Positions 10,989 through 63,429 of a DNA stretch of 64,000 nucleotides are shown piece after piece. Location: NCBI RefSeq assembly GCF_004664715.2, contig NC_051068.1:55934953-55998952 (forward strand). The letters run 5' to 3'. Position 1 is the first letter of the stretch; every line of letters starts with the position of its first letter. The stretch is from Peromyscus leucopus (lineage: Eukaryota; Chordata; Mammalia; Rodentia; Cricetidae). The position numbers were made by a program, and so were the translations under genes. Under the pieces are notes generated by a model. It was not told the origin of the DNA, made no database searches, and saw only the letters and a program-made list of their open reading frames with translations.

Positions 10989-11332
10989 TGTTGCTGGAGG
11001 GCTTCTCTCCAGGCTCCACCAAGCCCCACAGTCCCACAATCCACATATAAAATAATCACTCAGAAATTTATATTACTTATAAACTATATGGCCGTGGCAG
11101 GCTTCTTGCTAACTGTTCTTATATCTTAAATTAACCCATTTCTATAAATCTACACCTTGCCACGTGGCTGGTGGCTTACCGGCGTCTTCACATGCTGCTT
11201 GTCCTGGCGGTGGCTGCAGTGTCTCTCCCTCCTTCTTCCTGTTTCCCCAATTTTCCTCTCTCCTTGTCCCACCTATACTTCCTGCCTGGTCACTGGCCAT
11301 CAGTGTTTTATTTATATAGAGTGATATCCACA
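10989..11332 (-). mobile_element. 3' LTR of a minus-strand ERV
   Basis: On the minus strand the LTR starts TGTGGATATCAC at 11332 and ends in CA at 10989, about 344 bp. A polypurine tract precedes its first base, so this is the 3' LTR. Its 'cacgtggctggtggcttac' and 'acttcctgcctggtcactgg' parts recur in diverged form at 35847-36229. Confidence 0.75.
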
Positions 11333-15910: not shown

Positions 15911-16745
15911 GATTGGCATGGCCCCAGCAGCAGCATGGGCATCAGACACTAGCATGGCCCAGATCTCAGGAGTCCATGTTGCCTTCTATGGTAACAGGAA
16001 CCTCAGACATCAACACAGACCTTGGCTGCAGTAGGGCCATGGACCCAGACATGGCCCTCAGCTGCAACTCTGGCCCAAACGTCACCATGGCCTTAAGCAG
16101 CAGTCCGGGCCACTCAGATCTACACAGCCCCAACTGCAGCATGTCCCTGGGCCACCAACATGGACTCAGGTGGCCGACCTGACCCCGGGGATCTACATGG
16201 CTCTTGGTGGCAACATGGACCATGAACTTCACCACAGACCCAGCTGCAGTAGGACCCAGACACGGTGTTCGGTAGCAGCCCAGGTCTAGACATTGCCATG
16301 GCCCCAGGTGGTAGCACAGGCTACCCATACCTAGATGGCTCCAGTGGCAGCAGGGCGCTCAGACACCAACATAGCCCCAGGTGGCAGCCCAAGCCCCAGA
16401 AATCGCCATGGCCCTCATGGCAACAGGAGTCACGGACATCAACAAAGACCCTGGCTGCAGTAGGGCCATGGTCCCAGACATGGCCCCTCGCTGTAGCCCC
16501 GGCCTGGATGTCACCAAGGCACCAGATAGCAGTATGTGCCACTTACATCTGTATGGCCCCAAATGCAGCATGGCCCCTGGGCACCAACATGGCCCCAGGT
16601 GGCCAATCAGATCTCCGGGAACCACACAGCCTTTGGTTGCGACAGGAGTCACAGACATCAACTCAGACCCTGGCTGCTGTAGGGCCACAGACCCTGACAT
16701 GGCCCTCGGCAGCAACTCAAGCCTTAGCCCCGCAAACATGTTTTT
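15911..16745 (+). repeat. Tandem array of ~205-230 bp units
   Basis: The phrase 'gacatcaacacagaccttgg' followed by 'ctgcagtagggccatgg' recurs at about 15112, 15293 (weaker), 15998, 16230 (partial), 16435 and 16656. Removing the inserted LTR, spacing is about 180-230 bp. Open frames through it are Pro/Thr/Met-rich on both strands and are not taken as genes. Confidence 0.75.
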
Positions 16746-17212
16746 TTAAATAAACGACTTTTCACATCATTTTTCAGGTGTCAAAATTCCCCCACAAGTA
16801 TGTTCCCAGGATGAATAAATAATATCACTTATTTCCAGGAAGAAATGAAAGCTACCATAGCACAATTCAATAAAAAAAAAAAAAAAAAAATGGTTCTGTT
16901 ATCAGTCAGGTCTTCTCTTCTCAGGGGGGGTGGGGGGGACCTTCAAATGAAAAAAAGCATTTGACAAGCTCAGAACTGACAGAAGAAGACTTTCTCAGAC
17001 TGACAGCCAAGATTACTGCAAGCCACGGGGGAAGCCAGCAGCCAGACACTTGCAGCAGACCATTTCTTCAGCAATGAATTGGTGCACAGATATAATATTC
17101 ATACCACACATGATAGTCAAGATGCTCAAGTTCATGTTTCAAAACGCAACAACTGATACCGTAGGCTTCGTTGGCAATGAGAGAACAGTTAAGAATACCT
17201 TGGGCCTGAGAA
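16746..17212. other. Anonymous sequence with a poly(A) tract
   Basis: An A-run lies at 16872-16890 and a G-rich run at 16925-16938. I recognise no coding sequence, RNA gene or repeat family. Confidence 0.5.
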
Positions 17213-21063: not shown

Positions 21064-21453
21064 TGTGGTTTGAATAAGAATGAGCCCACCCATAAACTCA
21101 TGTATTTGAATGCTTATTCTCCAGTGAATGGCACTAGTTGAGAAGGATTAGGAGGTCTGGCCTTGTTGGAATAGATGTGGTCTTGTGGGAGGAAGTGTGT
21201 CACTGAGGGTAGGCTTTGAAGTTTCAAAAGCCCAAGCCAGGCCCAGTGTCTCTTTCTTCCTGCTGCCTTCAGATCCAGATGTAGAACTTTCAGCTGTTCT
21301 CCAGCACCATGTCTGCCTGCATGCTTCCATGCCCTGCCATTATAATGGACTAAACCTCTGAAACTGTAAGCAAGCCCCAATTAAATGCTTTCTTTTGTAA
21401 GAGTTGCTCTGGTCATGCTATTTCTACACAGCAATGGAACCGTGACTAAAACA
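21064..21453 (+). mobile_element. ORR1-like MaLR LTR
   Basis: Starts 'tgtggtttgaataagaatga', has 'ttgagaaggattaggaggtc' and 'gtcactgagggtaggctttg', and ends 'gactaaaaca'. The AATTAAA region near 21376 serves as the poly(A) signal area. It is a solo LTR. Confidence 0.9.
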
Positions 21454-34470: not shown

Positions 34471-35775
34471 ATAAAATTCCAGTGCCAGAAATGGGTTGTA
34501 TCTTATTGAGTAGCTGGCCAAAGGGGTCCCATGGAATACCCCAAGTATCACAGGCTAATGTCAGGACTTGTGACTGCTCTCTACAACCTGATGGTAAAGC
34601 CCTGTTGCTGAGGACAGTGATTACATCATTGAACATGGAGAAGTCAAGCTGGTGCCCAATTAGAAGTTGAATTCTCACTGACTAGTGTTTGTGGTGCTGA
34701 AAGGTACCCTGCACACTAATGGAGGAAGAAAGGTAATCATCAACTTCATGCAGTCACAAACACTATAACGTACAATCATGACCTGCATGCAAAACATACT
34801 AGTGTAATAGTGGCACCAAAGTTATGAAAATAGCCAACCAGTTTTGCCTTGTTTGGTTTTGAATTGGATTTAAGTCCCACTCCTTGAGATGGAACCCACA
34901 CCTGAAACTGCAAAACTGGCAAAGAACCCGAGACTCGATAGATCGTGGGCCCAGGGTTAAAACCTAATACTATTATTCTGCTAAGAGAACTATCTCAGGA
35001 TTTTATTGCTGTGGTAAGACACTGTGACCACGGCAACTCTTACACAGGAAAACATTTAACTGGGACTGGCTTACAGTTCAGAGTTTTCATGGCAGGAAAT
35101 GTGGCAGCATGCAGGCAGACATGGTGTTGGAGAGGTAGCTGAGAGTCCTACGTCTGGATCCCAAGGCAGCAGGAAAAGGCAGTGAGCCACTAGGCCTGGC
35201 TTGAGCTTCTGAAACCTCAAAGTCCACTCCCCAGTGCCACACTTCCTCCAACAAAAGGCCACCCCCTCCCAATGGTGCTACTCCCCATGGGCTTATGGGG
35301 ACCATTTTTATTCAAACCACCACAGGAACAAAGTAATACAGTGACTCCTAATGACATACTGCTTTCCCCACAGAACAGAGCATCGCCCAACCCTCATCAG
35401 AGAAGATTCTTCTACAGTCGACAGGAATTAACACGGAGATCACAAATGGGCAATGTGCAGAGAATGAGAGACTTTAGGGCACTCAGTTATTAATGGGATG
35501 TCTTCATCCAAACCCTTTTCTCAAGGCTCAGGGATCTATGTAGAAGAGGAGGCACAAAGTTTGTAAGAGCCAGAGGTGTTAGATGACTCCAGGGAAATAG
35601 CATCTTCTGGACACAAAGGGAGAGATGTACATATGAACTCAGAGAGACTGGCAGCACCCACAAAACCTGCATTGGTTTAAGCCATACACAATCCTAGCAC
35701 TGAGAAGGGGGAGTGGACACAAAGTCCTACCCCTAACCAAGAATTGCAATTACTACCTACTAGAAATAAGACAAC
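34471..35775 (+). mobile_element. L1 (Lx-type) 3' UTR, split by an ORR1-like LTR
   Basis: 'taatggaggaagaaaggtaa', 'gactcgatagatcgtgggcc' and, after the LTR at 34990-35324, 'aaggctcagggatctatgta', 'ttctggacacaaagggagag' are successive Lx 3' UTR landmarks. It ends before the T-run at 35778. Confidence 0.78.
34990..35324 (-). mobile_element. ORR1-like MaLR LTR, antisense
   Basis: 'ttttattgctgtggtaagac', 'gcaggcagacatggtgttgg' and the closing 'ttcaaaccaccaca'. Inserted in the L1 3' UTR and therefore younger than it. Confidence 0.92.
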
Positions 35776-35777
35776 AG

Positions 35778-35799
35778 TTTTTTTTTTTTTTTTTTTTTC
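35778..35799 (+). repeat. Poly(T) tract
   Basis: A run of about 22 T separates the L1 3' UTR from the nested ORR1 complex. Confidence 0.95.
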
Positions 35800-35816
35800 C
35801 AAAGGAGTGTCACTGA

Positions 35817-35846
35817 GTGTGGTGGTTTGAATAAGAATGGCCCCTG
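35817..35846 (+). mobile_element. ORR1-like LTR, piece 1 of 3
   Basis: 'tgtggtggtttgaataagaa' plus 'tggcccc' is the start of an ORR1 LTR. It resumes as 'ccataggctcata' at about 36235 and as 'gagaaggattaggaggtgtg' at about 37730, so one LTR has been split twice. Confidence 0.82.
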
Positions 35847-36229
35847 TAAACAGAATTTCTGTCCTGCCAGCAACTCCCAAATACCCAGCAGCCGCTTCCC
35901 AGATAATTGACTCGGAAGCTTAATATTACTTATAAATGCTCAACTGGTAGCTCAGGCTTATTACTAACTACCTCTTCCACTTAAATTAACCCATAATTCT
36001 TACCTATGTTTAGCCACATGGCTTGGTACCTTTTCTCAGTCCAATATTCTCATCTTGCTTCCTCTGCCTCTGGCTGGTGACTCCTGACTCTGCCCTTCCT
36101 CTTCCCAGAATTCTCCTAGTCTGGTCGCCCCACTTACACTTCCTGCCTGGCTACTGGCCAATCAGCATTTTATTAAACCAATTTGAGTGACAAATCTTTA
36201 CCATGTACAAGAGCATTATCCCACAGCAG
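35847..36229 (-). mobile_element. ERV LTR nested in ORR1
   Basis: TG...CA ends (minus strand starts TGTGGGATAATG). An AATAAA on the minus strand lies near 36170. A probable 6-bp duplication GGCCCC / GGCCAC flanks it. Related in layout to the LTR at 10989-11332. Confidence 0.72.
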
Positions 36230-36247
36230 GCCACCATAGGCTCATAC

Positions 36248-36370
36248 TGTTAGCATTTAGACATTTGTACTGGCCTGTCCTTAGGATCCTGACAGGATAT
36301 ACCTCAGCTACAGCCACTAAGAGCACCCCCTGTGTGCATTTGCTACATTTCCTTATAAAAAGTGGGCCTT
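36248..36370 (+). mobile_element. 5' LTR of a tRNA-Glu-primed ERV, part 1 (U3)
   Basis: The segment starts TGTTAG and carries a TATA box (TATAAAA, 36354-36360). An L1 insertion splits it just after the TATA box. The 14-bp AAAAAGTGGGCCTT flanks the L1 on both sides (36357-36370 and 36940-36953), so the two LTR parts are one. Joined length is about 217 bp. Confidence 0.72.
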
Positions 36371-36939
36371 AAACACCCTAATAATTGTGCCAGAAACCCC
36401 ATCCAAGGACTGAGGAATCTAGATGCAGAGATCCATGGCTAGGCCCCGGGTGGAGCGCTGGGAGTCTAATTAGCGAGAAAGAGGAGGGTTTATATGAGCG
36501 AGAATTGTTGAGACCAAAATTGGATAAAGCACAGGGACAAACAGACAAATGAATGGAAACACATGAACTATGAACCAAAGGCTGAGGGGCCCCCAACTTG
36601 ATCAGGCCCTCTGAATAGGTGAGACAGTTGATTGGCTTGATCTGTTTGGGAGGCATTTAGGCAGTGGTACCAGGTCCTGGGCTCGTTGCATGAGTTAGCT
36701 GTTTGAAACCTGGGACTTATGCAGGGATGCTTGGCTCAATCTGGGAGGAGGGGACTGGACCTGCCTGGACTGAGTCTACCAGGCTGATCTTGGTCCTCGG
36801 GGGTGGCCTTGATCTGGAGGTGGTGGGAAGGGGGGTGGGCTGGGGGGAAGGGGAGGGGCCAGGAAGGGGGAGAACAAGGGAATCTGTGGCTGTTATGTAG
36901 AACTGAATAGTATTGTAAAATAAAATAAATTAATTAAAA
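36371..36939 (+). mobile_element. 5'-truncated L1 3' UTR with 14-bp TSD
   Basis: 'gcagagatccatggctaggc', 'tgatctgtttgggaggcatt', a G-rich polypurine stretch at about 36790-36880, then 'aataaaataaattaatt' and an A tail. The exact 14-bp duplication shows target-primed insertion into the ERV LTR, 10 bp past its TATA box. Confidence 0.92.
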
Positions 36940-36953
36940 AAAAAGTGGGCCTT

Positions 36954-37047
36954 GCCCACCTCCTGTCTCTCCCCTCCCCTCAATAAACCTCCTATATAGG
37001 CCCTGTTGTAAAGTGTGACTTCTTCCTGCCGTCTTTAAAATACAGCA
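36954..37047 (+). mobile_element. 5' LTR of the tRNA-Glu-primed ERV, part 2 (R-U5)
   Basis: Contains the poly(A) signal AATAAA (36982-36987) and a T/G-rich U5 ending in 'aaaatacagca'. The CA end is followed by one base and then the primer binding site. Confidence 0.82.
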
Positions 37048-37048
37048 T

Positions 37049-37066
37049 TGGTTCCCTGACCGGGAA
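37049..37066 (+). other. Primer binding site for tRNA-Glu
   Basis: TGGTTCCCTGACCGGGAA is an 18-nt perfect complement of the 3' end of mammalian tRNA-Glu including CCA. It starts two bases after the LTR end. This identifies the cognate primer of the element and matches the tRNA copy found 580 bp downstream. Confidence 0.92.
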
Positions 37067-37644
37067 GGCTCTCCCAGCAGTCTGAGATGAACGGAGACCC
37101 TGGAACCCGGTCTGCCTGCAACAGCCCTACTTTCCCACCTGAGGGATCCCTGGGACTCTCCACTCAACACCACCGCTGATCAGTAAGCCCCCAGCTTCTG
37201 GCCATTTCCCACGAATGAGGCTTCATTACTTGAGCACAGTCCTTGCCTTTTGGCTTTTCTCGAAGTCCTGGTACTAGGTGAGTGTGTCTCCTTCAGGCTC
37301 CTAGCCCATCAGCCCCTGCTTTTTCGCATGATGGTCCACTGAGCAGCATGTGCCTCCACATCAGTCCTCGCTGAATCTCTGAGATGAGAGAGCCCTTGGA
37401 CCATCTCTACCTCACTCATGGAAAATGTGCCTACCTCCATATCTAGCACCTGATTTAAGGGCTTATTAACTTCTCCGCCTTTGCAGTCAGACTTGGTCCC
37501 ATACTCCTTAGATACCAATCAAAATGAAGGTACCCACTTCACGCTAGGACCCTACCTGCAACGGATTTGCTCTCTGCCACCTGCAACAAATCTGCTTTCT
37601 CATTCACCGACAGCTTTGCCTTCCATTCAGCACCAACAATTGGG
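37067..37644. mobile_element. ERV internal/leader remnant
   Basis: 'ctaggtgagtgtgtctcctt' at about 37274 looks like a leader splice donor on the plus strand. The minus strand has a 70-codon open frame (37518-37309) of unknown identity, so part of this piece may be inverted. No gag, pol or env domain is identifiable. Confidence 0.45.
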
Positions 37645-37715
37645 TCCCTGGTGGTCTAGTGGTTAGGATTCTGCACTTTCACCAACACGCGGCCTGGGTT
37701 CCGGTCAGGGAACCA
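37645..37715 (+). pseudogene. Reverse-transcribed tRNA-Glu(UUC) copy with CCA end
   Basis: It starts TCCCTGGTGGTCTAGTGG, has a UUC anticodon (37678-37680) and ends GGTCAGGGAA plus CCA (37713-37715). Genes do not encode CCA, so the source was a mature tRNA. A six-base deletion removes the T-loop including position 58, and the anticodon stem is mismatched, so it cannot be functional. It runs straight into an 11/12 match to the inverted ERV U5 end. Confidence 0.9.
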
Positions 37716-37729
37716 AATGTTGTATTTTT
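37716..37729 (-). mobile_element. Inverted U5 terminus of the ERV fused to the tRNA copy
   Basis: 'atgttgtatttt' (37717-37728) is the reverse complement of the LTR end 'aaaatacagcat' (37037-37048) with one change. The order tRNA-CCA-U5 is that of a minus-strand cDNA still attached to its primer. The right boundary blends into ORR1 sequence through shared T/A bases. Confidence 0.7.
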
Positions 37730-37977
37730 GAGAAGGATTAGGAGGTGTGACCTGATTGAATAAAATATGTCACTGGGGGGGGGGCAGGAGGCTTTGAGGT
37801 TTCAAAGTCCACACAAGGCCTGGTGTCTCTCTGGCAGCCAGGGGAGCAGGATGCAATTCTCAGCTACTTCTCTAGCACCGTCCATGCCACCATGCTCCCC
37901 TCCATGTTGATAATGGACTAAACTTCTGAAACTGTAAATAAGCCCCCCAATTAAATACTTCTTTTTATGAGTTGTAT
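37730..37977 (+). mobile_element. ORR1-like LTR, piece 3 of 3
   Basis: 'gagaaggattaggaggtgtg', 'aaagtccacacaaggcctgg' and 'gaaactgtaaataagccccc' complete the ORR1 begun at 35817. About 40-45 bp of expected ORR1 sequence is missing at the junction with the tRNA/U5 piece. Confidence 0.85.
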
Positions 37978-38551
37978 GCTGGCTCATATGTTTGTATGTC
38001 AACTAGACACAAACTAGAGTTAACTGAAAGGAGGGATCCTCAGTTGAGAAAATGCCTCCATAAGATCTGGCTGTAGGGTTGTCTTCATTGGGGTTTCTAT
38101 TGCTGTACCAAAACACAAGTTAGGAAGGAAAGGATTTATTTGACTTTCACTTCCATAATGTTGTTCATCACTAAAGAAAATCAGACCAGGAGCTCAAACA
38201 GGACATGATCCTGGAGGCAGGAGCTGATGTAGAGGCCACAGAGGAGAGCTTGCTCACCTTGCTTTCTTACAGAACCCAGGACCACCAGCCCAGGAGTGGC
38301 ACCACTCACCATGGGCTGGGCCCTCCCTCATTGATCACTAAGTGAGAGAATGCTTTACAGTTACAGTTTGATCTCATGGAGGCATTTCCTCAACTGACAG
38401 TCCTTCCTCTCTGATGACTCTATCTCAAGTTCACACACAAAACCAGCCAGCACAAAGGTATTTTCTTAATTAATGATTGATGTAGGAAAGCCGAGCCCAT
38501 TTTGGATGGTGACATCCACAGCTGGTGGTTCTGGGTTCTATAAGAAAGCAA
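37978..38551 (+). mobile_element. MT-like MaLR LTR split by an antisense LTR
   Basis: 'tgctggctcatatgtttgta' to 'gatctggctgtaggg' (38078), resuming at 38455 with 'ttttcttaattaatgattga' and 'gttctataagaaagcaa'. The insert is the LTR at 38080-38454. The 3' third is missing. Confidence 0.85.
38080..38454 (-). mobile_element. MT-like MaLR LTR, antisense, nested
   Basis: TGTCTTCATTGG...CCAGCACA, flanked by AGGGT / AAGGT, a probable 5-bp duplication as expected for ERVL-MaLR elements. It is in opposite orientation to its host LTR of the same family. Confidence 0.87.
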
Positions 38552-38553
38552 AT

Positions 38554-38670
38554 TGTCCTGGCTAGTTTCATGTCAACTTAACAAAAGTTAGAGCCATCGG
38601 AGACGAATGAGCCTCAATTGAGAAAGTGCCTCCATGAGATCCAGCTGTAAGGCATTTTCTCAATTAGTGG
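38554..38670 (+). mobile_element. MT-like MaLR LTR 5' fragment
   Basis: 'tgtcctggctagtttcatgt' through 'gcattttctcaattagtggc'. It breaks off at about 38670 and unfamiliar sequence follows. Confidence 0.82.
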
Positions 38671-39739
38671 CAAAGAATACATATTACCTTTCTAAAAAGG
38701 GGCTGGGGCATAAGGTGGAAATACTGAACCAAAGCATAGGAAGGCAAACTCTAAGTGCTGCATCTCCAAATCTGATGTCAAAGCATTCTTCAGATTTCCC
38801 ACTCCCTCCAGTTTTGTTGACTACAACATACTTCTCTCTCTGTGTCCTGTCAGTGGCTCTCTCTCGCACGTATCCCATGACTTGGGCATCTTCAATACGT
38901 TGGGGATGCAATCCAGGCTTTACCTTCACAACTTCACACAATGGCTTCCCCCAATGCTCTATGCAGGGACTCCCCTGCCACACACCTAGCTTCAGTGGCT
39001 TTCCTTATCCACAGAGGAAGGTTCCAAAAACCCATTTACTTCTGTATCCTTCTTGACTTCAAAGCCACAACCATGTGGCCAAGTTTGTCAAGGTCTTCCG
39101 CTTGCTGGTGCTGGAACATTGCCCACTCCTAGACTTACATTTGTGTAAGTTTTCTGTTGTTGATGGTTTCCTTTGCTGCTTAAGCTTACGCTTCCCTTAG
39201 TTCCTTCTCACAGACTGGAAGCTTCTCTCGGTGGTATCTTCCACTGCGGGCACCACCCCCTTTATTCCATTTTGAATCAGGCTTATCTTTAAACCTTACA
39301 TCTCCTTGGCCACAGGACTTGACTCCAACATTACATTTCCTGATGCTGTTTTTGTTTGTTTTGTTTGTTTGTTTGTTTGTTTTTATATCTCCTTGTTCCA
39401 TTTGCTCCTTTTCATTGTAGATTTGCAGAAGAGTGATCACTGATAACTGTGTGACACAATCAGCACCAGGCTGTCTTGAAATCTCCTCTGCCAATGCCAT
39501 TAATCCAAAACTCTTCAATTTAGCCACTGTCAGATTTTTAGGACAAGAGCAAAAAGCAGCCACATTCTTTAGCAAAATATTATAAGAAAATGGTCTTTGG
39601 GGCCACTTAATAATATTCTTCCCCTCTGAAAGCACCTGAGCCAGTTCTGTGTAGTCCAAATCACCCTCAACACTATCTATCCACAAATTCAGCCCTACAG
39701 AAGGGACTAGAAGGAAAAGATCCACTTAAGGAGGTTAAC
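38671..39739 (-). mobile_element. Unidentified repeat-like segment with a 179-codon frame
   Basis: The minus strand carries an open frame from 39725 to 39186 with a TTTG-run-derived Lys/Thr/Asn insert (39350-39390). The rest has normal protein-like composition (WPQRPFSYN, KLKSFGLMALAEE). I recall similar non-coding repeats in house mouse but cannot name the family. An ERV or L1 internal region is likelier than a host gene because it abuts an LTR fragment and an L1. Confidence 0.45.
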
Positions 39740-62827: not shown

Positions 62828-62998
62828 GCCGGGCGTTGGTGGCGCACGCCTTTAATCCCAGCACTCGGGAGGCAGAGCCAGGCGGATCTCTGTGAGTTCG
62901 AGGCCAGCCTGGGCTACCAAGTGAGCTCCAGGAAAGGCGCAAAGCTACACAGAGAAACCCTGTCTCGAAAAACCAAAAAAAAAAAAAAAAAAAAAAAG
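62828..62998 (+). mobile_element. Young full-length B1 inserted at the B2 target copy
   Basis: 'gccgggcgttggtggcgcac' to a long A tail. AGAAGCTTGAA precedes and follows it, so it landed in the right-hand target duplication of the B2 and copied it again. Confidence 0.94.
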
Positions 62999-63051
62999 AA
63001 GCTTGAACCCTGCCTCACTAAACATTTCAGCAACAAGCACATTATGTTGTA

Positions 63052-63429
63052 GAAGGTGGCATGGACTTGCTGAGTGGCCTGAGTGGCCTATGCTGCAACC
63101 TGGGGCCATGGTTTGGGCCCAAGCAGCAGCAGAGGGCCATGTCTGGGTCTGTGGCCCTACTGTAGCCACCTGACTACCACCTAGGACCATGTTACAGTCT
63201 GGGGACCACGTTGCTGCTGTGCCACCCAGGGCCTTGGTGACGTTGGGGCCCAAGCTGATGGTGATGGCCATGTCTGGGTCTGTGGTCCTTCTGGGTCTGT
63301 GTTGATGTATGTTGCTCATGTGTTTAACCATGTATTGAAGTATGAGGGCCATGCTGAATTAACCTGACCCCTCCATGACTCCTGAAAGGGAAAGCTGGTC
63401 CTGCCTCTCATAGGAGAGCTTCCATCCCA

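What the first reader, a model, noticed from the sequence alone, without database searches (positions are those of the whole stretch)
37049..37729. Fossil of a retroviral tRNA primer: full tRNA-Glu copy, CCA end and U5 terminus in one piece
Seen: an ERV with a perfect 18-nt tRNA-Glu primer binding site (37049-37066), one base after the LTR end. About 580 bp on lies a near full-length tRNA-Glu(UUC) copy (37645-37712) with CCA (37713-37715), joined to an 11/12 match to the inverted LTR end. tRNA-CCA-U5 complement is the order of minus-strand cDNA still attached to its primer. Known: copying of primer tRNA normally stops at 1-methyladenosine 58, giving the 18-nt PBS. Here copying continued through the whole tRNA, and the only large defect is a six-base deletion that removes A58. 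Inferred: reverse transcriptase read through or jumped the modified base, and the product was joined to the genome by non-canonical repair, losing about 40 bp of the host ORR1.
Basis: partly seen in the sequence, partly recalled or inferred. Interest (0 to 1): 0.88.

Follow-up and report, generated by a model that had tools for sequence, protein, structure and literature searches.

The report
Fossil copies of retroviral tRNA primers
A broken endogenous retrovirus in this genome carries a DNA copy of the cellular tRNA that primed its reverse transcription, and the same genome holds many similar scars beside other LTRs, most of them altered at the one tRNA base that is normally methylated.

Summary
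An LTR, a tRNA-Glu primer-binding site and 578 bp of leader are followed by a near-complete tRNA-Glu copy, CCA, one extra A and 12 nt of complementary U5. Against family U5 variants the U5 match is 12/12. Family copies put the LTR start at 36248, so about 34 bp of ORR1 are missing. The leader-tRNA joint lies in a 9/10-nt homology.

It is not alone. One more tRNA-Glu-CCA-U5' case of this family was found. For tRNA-Lys, 175 places (≤1 mismatch) hold tRNA bases 51-76 plus complementary U5. In 90 sampled rows (89 places) base 58, m1A in mature tRNA, reads T 74, G 8, A 8, C 0; other positions differ in about 3% of cells. Joints at the tRNA end are nearly all different. Of 16 loci with both outer ends readable (small proviruses or inverted LTR pairs), 13 have exact 6-bp target duplications.

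Best reading: plus-strand strong-stop DNA read through the methylated primer, could not transfer normally, switched template, and integrase inserted the product. The window looks like the inverted type with its right LTR lost. Isolated precedents exist (MMLV, HIV); I found no report of a recurrent germline record.

The parts
36228..36247 (+). ORR1 (MaLR) host piece left of the insertion
   Evidence: similar to other ORR1-like copies of the window up to here; the following 26 bases (36250-36275) align to three such copies no better than shuffles, P 0.21-0.45
36248..37047 (+). LTR of the tRNA-Glu-primed ERV (about 217 bp without the later insertion)
   Evidence: hits to family copies begin at 36248 in 13 of 19 loci; ends one base before the PBS
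36371..36939 (+). later LINE-like insertion inside the LTR, flanked by a 14-bp duplication at 36357-36370 and 36940-36953
   Evidence: repeat search and self-comparison; LTR hits in family copies break here; LINE identity is inferred
37049..37066 (+). primer-binding site, 18/18 complement of tRNA-Glu 3' end
37067..37644 (+). ERV leader
   Evidence: aligned in pieces to family copies
37645..37654 (+). joint: tRNA 5' end TCCCTGGTGG; family leader reads TCTCTGGTGG here (9/10)
   Evidence: hits to all 19 family loci end at 37654; the window's form after this leader occurs once in the genome, exact search
37645..37712 (+). copy of tRNA-Glu(UUC); 6-nt deletion near 37700-37702 takes out base 58
   Evidence: alignment
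37713..37715 (+). CCA of the mature tRNA
37716..37716 (+). extra A between CCA and U5 complement
   Evidence: this form of the U5/PBS joint occurs nowhere else at up to one mismatch
37717..37728 (-). 12 nt of U5 end, inverted, 12/12 to U5 of L002, L004, L018
37728..37974 (+). ORR1 resumes (overlaps the U5 piece by one T)
   Evidence: match to ORR1-like copy at 21138-21406 and others

Best explanation
During reverse transcription of a tRNA-Glu-primed ERV the plus-strand strong-stop DNA did not stop at methylated A58 of the primer but copied the tRNA to its 5' end. The extended end could not pair at the PBS. It annealed through the 10-nt homology to the leader of a plus-sense viral template and was extended back through leader, PBS, U5, R and U3. 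That gives an inverted-LTR molecule, LTR-PBS-leader-tRNA-CCA-LTR', with a U3 terminus at each end, which integrase inserted into an ORR1. The right LTR except 12 nt of U5 was lost with about 34 bp of ORR1, at insertion or later. Shown: order of parts, exact U5 variant, homology at the joint, LTR terminus on the left, and full-form relatives for tRNA-Lys with target duplications. Inferred: strand order in time, integrase for this copy, and how the right LTR was lost.
For: U5 12/12 with family variants and unique in the window. LTR start at 36248. Family leader continues differently after the 9/10 homology, and the joint keeps the tRNA's base. Second case L135 with tRNA-Glu-CCA, 22 nt U5', then R' and U3'. 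tRNA-Lys class: 175 places with tRNA 51-76 plus U5', control 0; base 58 changed in 82 of 90 rows against 100 of 3658 cells at positions 1-50 without 29 and 41; inverted LTR pairs, 6 of 7 with exact 6-bp duplications, and direct ones, 7 of 9; 0 of 240 swapped pairs. L049, L059 and L074 show LTR-PBS-leader-tRNA-CCA-LTR'.
Against: The right LTR of this copy is missing, so the inverted pair and a target duplication are not seen here. Exact tRNA-Glu read-through patterns gave 0 and only two Glu cases are known. L135 keeps A58 and no left LTR was found in what I fetched. The donor-to-acceptor direction rests on one base. The small deletion at base 58 sits between short TTC repeats and could be later slippage. 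PMC1785368 (passages) found no extra tRNA sequence in HIV-1 proviruses made with an A58U tRNA, so m1A58 is not the only stop.
Confidence: 0.72

Rival explanations
1. One reading: a nascent minus strand (tRNA plus about 13 nt) was copied and joined to a broken provirus and to ORR1 by end joining; no inverted LTR was ever made.
For: Only 12 nt of U5' remain, ORR1 has lost about 34 bp and there is a one-base overlap at the ORR1 joint.
Against: The left end is an exact LTR terminus; the full inverted form exists for tRNA-Lys with target duplications; L135 keeps the U5'-R'-U3' order to the LTR end.
Confidence: 0.2
2. LINE-1 machinery made a tRNA/ERV chimera by template switching.
For: L1-tRNA chimeras exist in mammals (PMC13174262, passages read).
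Against: U3 is present, no poly(A) or long target duplication was seen here; the sister class has LTR termini and 6-bp duplications. Chimeras in that paper are mostly half-length tRNAs joined to L1.
Confidence: 0.04
3. An amplified ERV subfamily carries the tRNA unit as an inherited part.
For: L053 and L117 nearly share a joint and L054/L055 are a tandem duplicate, so some Lys elements were copied onward.
Against: 88 of 90 rows have different 16-base joints; two tRNA-Lys isodecoders and several start points; the window's leader-tRNA joint is unique.
Confidence: 0.03
4. An unrelated tRNA-Glu pseudogene lies beside the ERV by chance.
For: tRNA-Glu copies with CCA exist elsewhere in the genome.
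Against: Same isoacceptor as the PBS, CCA, 12/12 U5 and homology at the joint together.
Confidence: 0.01

Closest known systems
[quoted passage not shown] seen only as described in PMC12220202)
   Same: DNA copy of a whole or nearly whole tRNA left at the U5 end after reverse transcription
   Different: not the cognate primer, episomal circle, four bases missing at the 5' end; here the cognate primer, in the germline, joined to leader
tRNA-Gly copy beside the 3' LTR of an HIV provirus in a Jurkat subclone (PMC12220202; abstract and sections 13-15 read)
   Same: tRNA-CCA next to the U5 end, provirus damaged, host bases replaced
   Different: not the primer tRNA, single cell clone; its authors prefer an independent insertion
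PBS or tRNA primer sequence in HIV-1 2-LTR circle junctions (PMC5618025, passages read)
   Same: primer-derived bases at a U5 end
   Different: unintegrated circles; the junctions described in the passages carry PBS sequence, no whole tRNA
Strong-stop origin proposed for tRNA-derived SINEs (Ohshima et al. 1993; title seen in the reference list of PMC9223172, content recalled)
   Same: tRNA joined to U5 complement
   Different: a hypothesis for SINE families; the window's unit is not amplified
Helenus, TRIM elements with tRNA sequence in their LTRs (PMC10886601, passages read)
   Same: tRNA sequence in an LTR element
   Different: tRNA inside the LTR, amplified families; here outside the LTR at the primer position
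Nonautonomous mysTR-related ERVKs of the deer mouse (PMC10089650, passages read)
   Same: ERVK elements with replaced interiors, a possible end product of such jumps
   Different: that paper suggests recombination; whether this genome and these Lys LTRs are those was not tested

Membership tests
Read-through copy of a retroviral primer tRNA | tRNA matches the element's own PBS | tested here: met
   PBS and tRNA copy are both Glu
Read-through copy of a retroviral primer tRNA | mature CCA joined to U5 complement | tested here: met
   CCA, one extra A, then 12/12 U5'
Read-through copy of a retroviral primer tRNA | trace of m1A58 | tested here: inconclusive
   window: deletion over base 58; L135: A58; Lys class: 82 of 90 rows changed
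Inverted-LTR (LTR-leader-tRNA-LTR') insertion | LTR terminus at the left host joint | tested here: met
Inverted-LTR (LTR-leader-tRNA-LTR') insertion | complete inverted LTR on the right and target duplication | tested here: not met
   only 12 nt of U5' remain; so filed as works like, and probably a remnant of, this form
tRNA-derived SINE | amplified tRNA plus tail unit | tested here: not met
   17 tRNA-Glu places, one with this junction
LINE-1 tRNA retropseudogene or chimera | poly(A) or 7-20 bp target duplication at the tRNA unit | tested here: not met
   none seen in the sequence around 37645-37730 or in the repeat search of 35000-39500
ERV with tRNA-Glu PBS | gag, pol and class assignment | not tested
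   the fragment ends in the leader; no protein was searched

The most novel reading that the evidence does not exclude
Failure of the m1A58 stop is a standing route of retrovirus decay and renewal in this lineage. Reverse transcriptase copies the methylated primer, leaving a base-58 signature in the germline, and then jumps to other templates: viral leader, other tRNAs at their CCA ends, poly(A) ends, or distant viral sites. This makes inverted-LTR pairs and small proviruses that integrase still inserts, a possible source of nonautonomous ERVs with replaced interiors.
Probability: 0.6. Interest if true: 0.9.

Novelty: new variant of a known kind. Interest (0 to 1): 0.84.

Why it matters
The plus-strand stop at m1A58 is known from work in vitro and in cell culture. 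Here a genome records many natural failures: the modified base shows up as a mutation hotspot, and the fate of each failed molecule can be read at its joint. The rate, fidelity and outcome of bypassing a tRNA modification become testable by comparing genomes. It also offers a concrete origin for ERVs with replaced interiors, and a real counterpart of the strong-stop intermediate once proposed for tRNA SINEs.

Tried and rejected
Chance or ORR1 origin of the U5-like bases: rejected. LTR start at 36276 with almost no host loss: considered, rejected by family copies. Plain tRNA pseudogene and LINE-1 chimera: see rivals. Four pattern scans of viral contigs gave 0. Exact tRNA-Glu read-through patterns gave 0. 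The form with the extra base as a family trait: only this locus at up to one mismatch (L020 has an extra T in a more diverged joint). No second genome could be searched, so no empty site. No left LTR of L135 was found in its own 1.5 kb or in a further 2.6-kb piece upstream.

Limits of the counts. The 30 loci L045-L074 were found with a query that carries T58 (44 matches, 40 spanning tRNA and U5', out of 1632 candidates of which 40 were scored). The other 60 come, whose pattern has N at 58: 51 exact and 9 of the 10 listed one-mismatch rows. L054 and L055 are tandem copies and my script read the same one twice, so 90 rows are 89 places; the other copy also reads T. Of the 90 exact rows (my count: T 78, G 9, A 3, C 0) eleven were not fetched; of 85 one-mismatch places only 10 were listed (T 5, A 5), so A58 may be commoner among diverged copies. 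Bases 51-76 other than 58 were fixed by the pattern, so positions 1-50 serve as comparison. The native leader beside the Lys PBS also gives T at the place of base 58 where I saw it (L043, L049), so T alone is ambiguous; G58 and T58 in non-primer copies (tRNA-Glu of L023 and L028; the tRNA-Arg-like end of L068, identity recalled) are not explained by that. tRNA-Glu of L022 and L024 keeps A58, L031 has C58.

Full report
The sequence. Inside an ORR1 element sits an ERV fragment: LTR 36248-37047, with a later LINE-like insertion at 36371-36939 flanked by a 14-bp duplication; one base; a perfect tRNA-Glu PBS at 37049-37066; 578 bp of leader. Then follow a tRNA-Glu(UUC) copy at 37645-37712, CCA, one A, and ATGTTGTATTTT, after which ORR1 resumes at 37728.

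The U5 match. In the window, both strands, only this place and the LTR itself reach 11/12. Shuffles give P 0.0002 for U5 and 0.05 to 0.96 for six ORR1 copies. The form with the extra base is found nowhere else at up to one mismatch.

Borders. Thirteen of 19 family loci have an LTR hit that begins exactly at 36248; the best of five TG candidates for a terminal inverted repeat is also 36248, with 7 of 12. Against the ORR1 copy at 21138 about 34 bp are missing. The family leader does not run into tRNA: hits to all 19 family loci end at 37654, and the 11 loci printed in leader orientation continue with other sequence; the leader there reads TCTCTGGTGG with small variants. The tRNA begins TCCCTGGTGG, so the joint lies in a 9/10 homology, and the leader followed by the tRNA's form occurs once in the genome, exact search. 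In a template switch the donor's base is kept, which favours tRNA as donor and leader as acceptor, on the strength of one base.

Is it alone? A search with tRNA plus junction gave 17 places including the window, all 17 candidates scored. None of the 16 others has this family's U5' after the tRNA; L022, L024, L025, L028 and L030 have CCA, L023 has CC. Exact read-through patterns for Glu gave 0. A pattern with up to two mismatches gave 3 places; one, L135 (C1:28812595), is a second case: full-length tRNA-Glu with A58, CCA, 22 nt of U5' identical to L002, then SINE-like copies, then R' and U3' to the LTR end.

The tRNA-Lys class. L022 holds tRNA-Glu-CCA and tRNA-Lys-CCA between two inverted LTRs that are identical over 320 of 320 bases, with TACCCC on both outer sides. 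A search with its tRNA-Lys-CCA-U5' gave 44 matches, 40 spanning both parts (1632 candidates, 40 scored). A pattern of tRNA-Lys 51-76 plus 8 nt of U5', any base at 58, up to one mismatch, gave 175 places, control 0. The pattern limited to PBS length plus U5' gave 377, control 0; the mismatch budgets differ, so the ratio is only a rough guide.

Base 58. In 90 rows (89 places, L045-L134) it reads T 74, G 8, A 8, C 0. At positions 1-50, without 29 and 41, which separate two isodecoders, 100 of 3658 cells differ; the highest single position is 49 with 15 of 88. Two tRNA-Lys gene candidates without U5' (L140, L143) have A58, as have six tRNA-Glu copies of a C14 cluster (L026, L027, L032-L035). m1A causes arrest and misincorporation in reverse transcription (PMC4787781, passages read). 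It is described as the main stop of plus-strand strong-stop synthesis in HIV-1 (PMC13191261, passages read) but only a partial one, and an A58U primer did not yield longer tRNA sequence in proviruses (PMC1785368, passages read). The window's 6-nt deletion covers the same base; L135 keeps it.

What the tRNA is joined to. 88 of 90 rows have different 16-base joints; one identical pair is the copy read twice, one is poly(A). L053 and L117 nearly agree, so some elements were copied onward. In the 39 of 90 rows whose copy starts at tRNA base 1, the neighbour ends in CCA in 10 (P 4e-10 against 1/64) and in A in 28, as if RT jumped end to end onto RNA 3' ends. Runs of A stand there in L047, L067 and L069 and L146.

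Architecture. Of the 30 rows L045-L074, with up to 1.5 kb in view beyond the tRNA, 10 have a second LTR in direct orientation (one the repeated row), 7 an inverted one beginning at LTR base 1, 3 only LTR pieces and 10 none. Sixteen, L041 included, could be tested for duplications: 7 of 9 direct and 6 of 7 inverted are exact over 6 bp; 0 of 240 swapped pairs reach 5 of 6. L055 and L058 were left out because the left LTR was cut by the end of the stretch; L054 is in a tandem duplicate and failed, as did L053 and L074. L049, L059 and L074 have LTR, PBS, about 240 bp, tRNA-Lys, CCA, LTR', the window's order. tRNA-Lys-CCA also stands beside two other recurrent sequences that look like U5 ends of further LTRs; that was not tested.

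Mechanism. Read-through makes a plus-strand end that cannot prime at the PBS. A switch to the minus strand farther on gives LTR-tRNA'-X-LTR proviruses; a switch to a plus-sense template gives inverted pairs. Both have two LTR ends for integrase. The window fits the second path, with the right LTR lost. The order of steps is inference from the products.

Known work. PMC12220202 (abstract and sections 13-15 read) reports a tRNA-Gly copy beside an HIV provirus and recounts the MMLV circle of Colicelli and Goff. PMC5618025 (passages) reports primer-derived bases in 2-LTR junctions. PMC10986323 (abstract) shows tRNA-primed strand transfer in vitro. PMC13174262 (passages) lists L1-tRNA chimeras, mostly half-length. 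PMC10089650 (passages) suggests recombination for the replaced interiors of deer mouse ERVKs. The listings of searches showed me no account of a recurrent germline class with a base-58 signature; that library lacks most subscription journals, and I opened only some of the papers listed.

Noticed in passing
L042 / L022 (C11:41128000-41132500): tRNA-Glu-CCA and tRNA-Lys-CCA in tandem between two identical inverted LTRs with TACCCC duplications; L040 and L041 also hold the Glu-Lys pair but with other surroundings.
   Followed up: yes
L041 (C1:193597000-193600999): Small provirus-like unit in which the complements of whole tRNA-Lys and tRNA-Glu follow the first LTR, about 1 kb before a second LTR, duplication GTCTGC on both sides.
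   Followed up: partly
L043 (C11:10547000-10552000): tRNA-Glu copy with CCA about 190 bp inside an element with a tRNA-Lys PBS.
   Followed up: no
L044 (C5:32180500-32184500): LTR bases 1-132 joined to sense tRNA-Glu that differs from the gene only at base 58 (A to T) and ends in CC.
   Followed up: partly
L137 (C17:71394786): tRNA-Glu 3' part with CCA that looks flanked by inverted pieces of the Lys-primed LTR; seen by eye only.
   Followed up: no
L068 (C14:27423852): tRNA-Lys copy joined to the CCA end of what looks like tRNA-Arg, again with T at base 58.
   Followed up: no
L138, L146, L147, L151, L152 and L139, L141, L145, L148, L150, L153, L154: tRNA-Lys-CCA beside two other recurrent sequences, probably U5 ends of further LTR families.
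   Followed up: no
window 35850-36224: Another repeat inserted in the 5' part of the same ORR1 (35857-36174 matches window 11003-11312 at 68%).
   Followed up: no
window 16253-16753 and 62945-63358: Open frames with a similar repeated peptide pattern, probably a dispersed tandem repeat.
   Followed up: no
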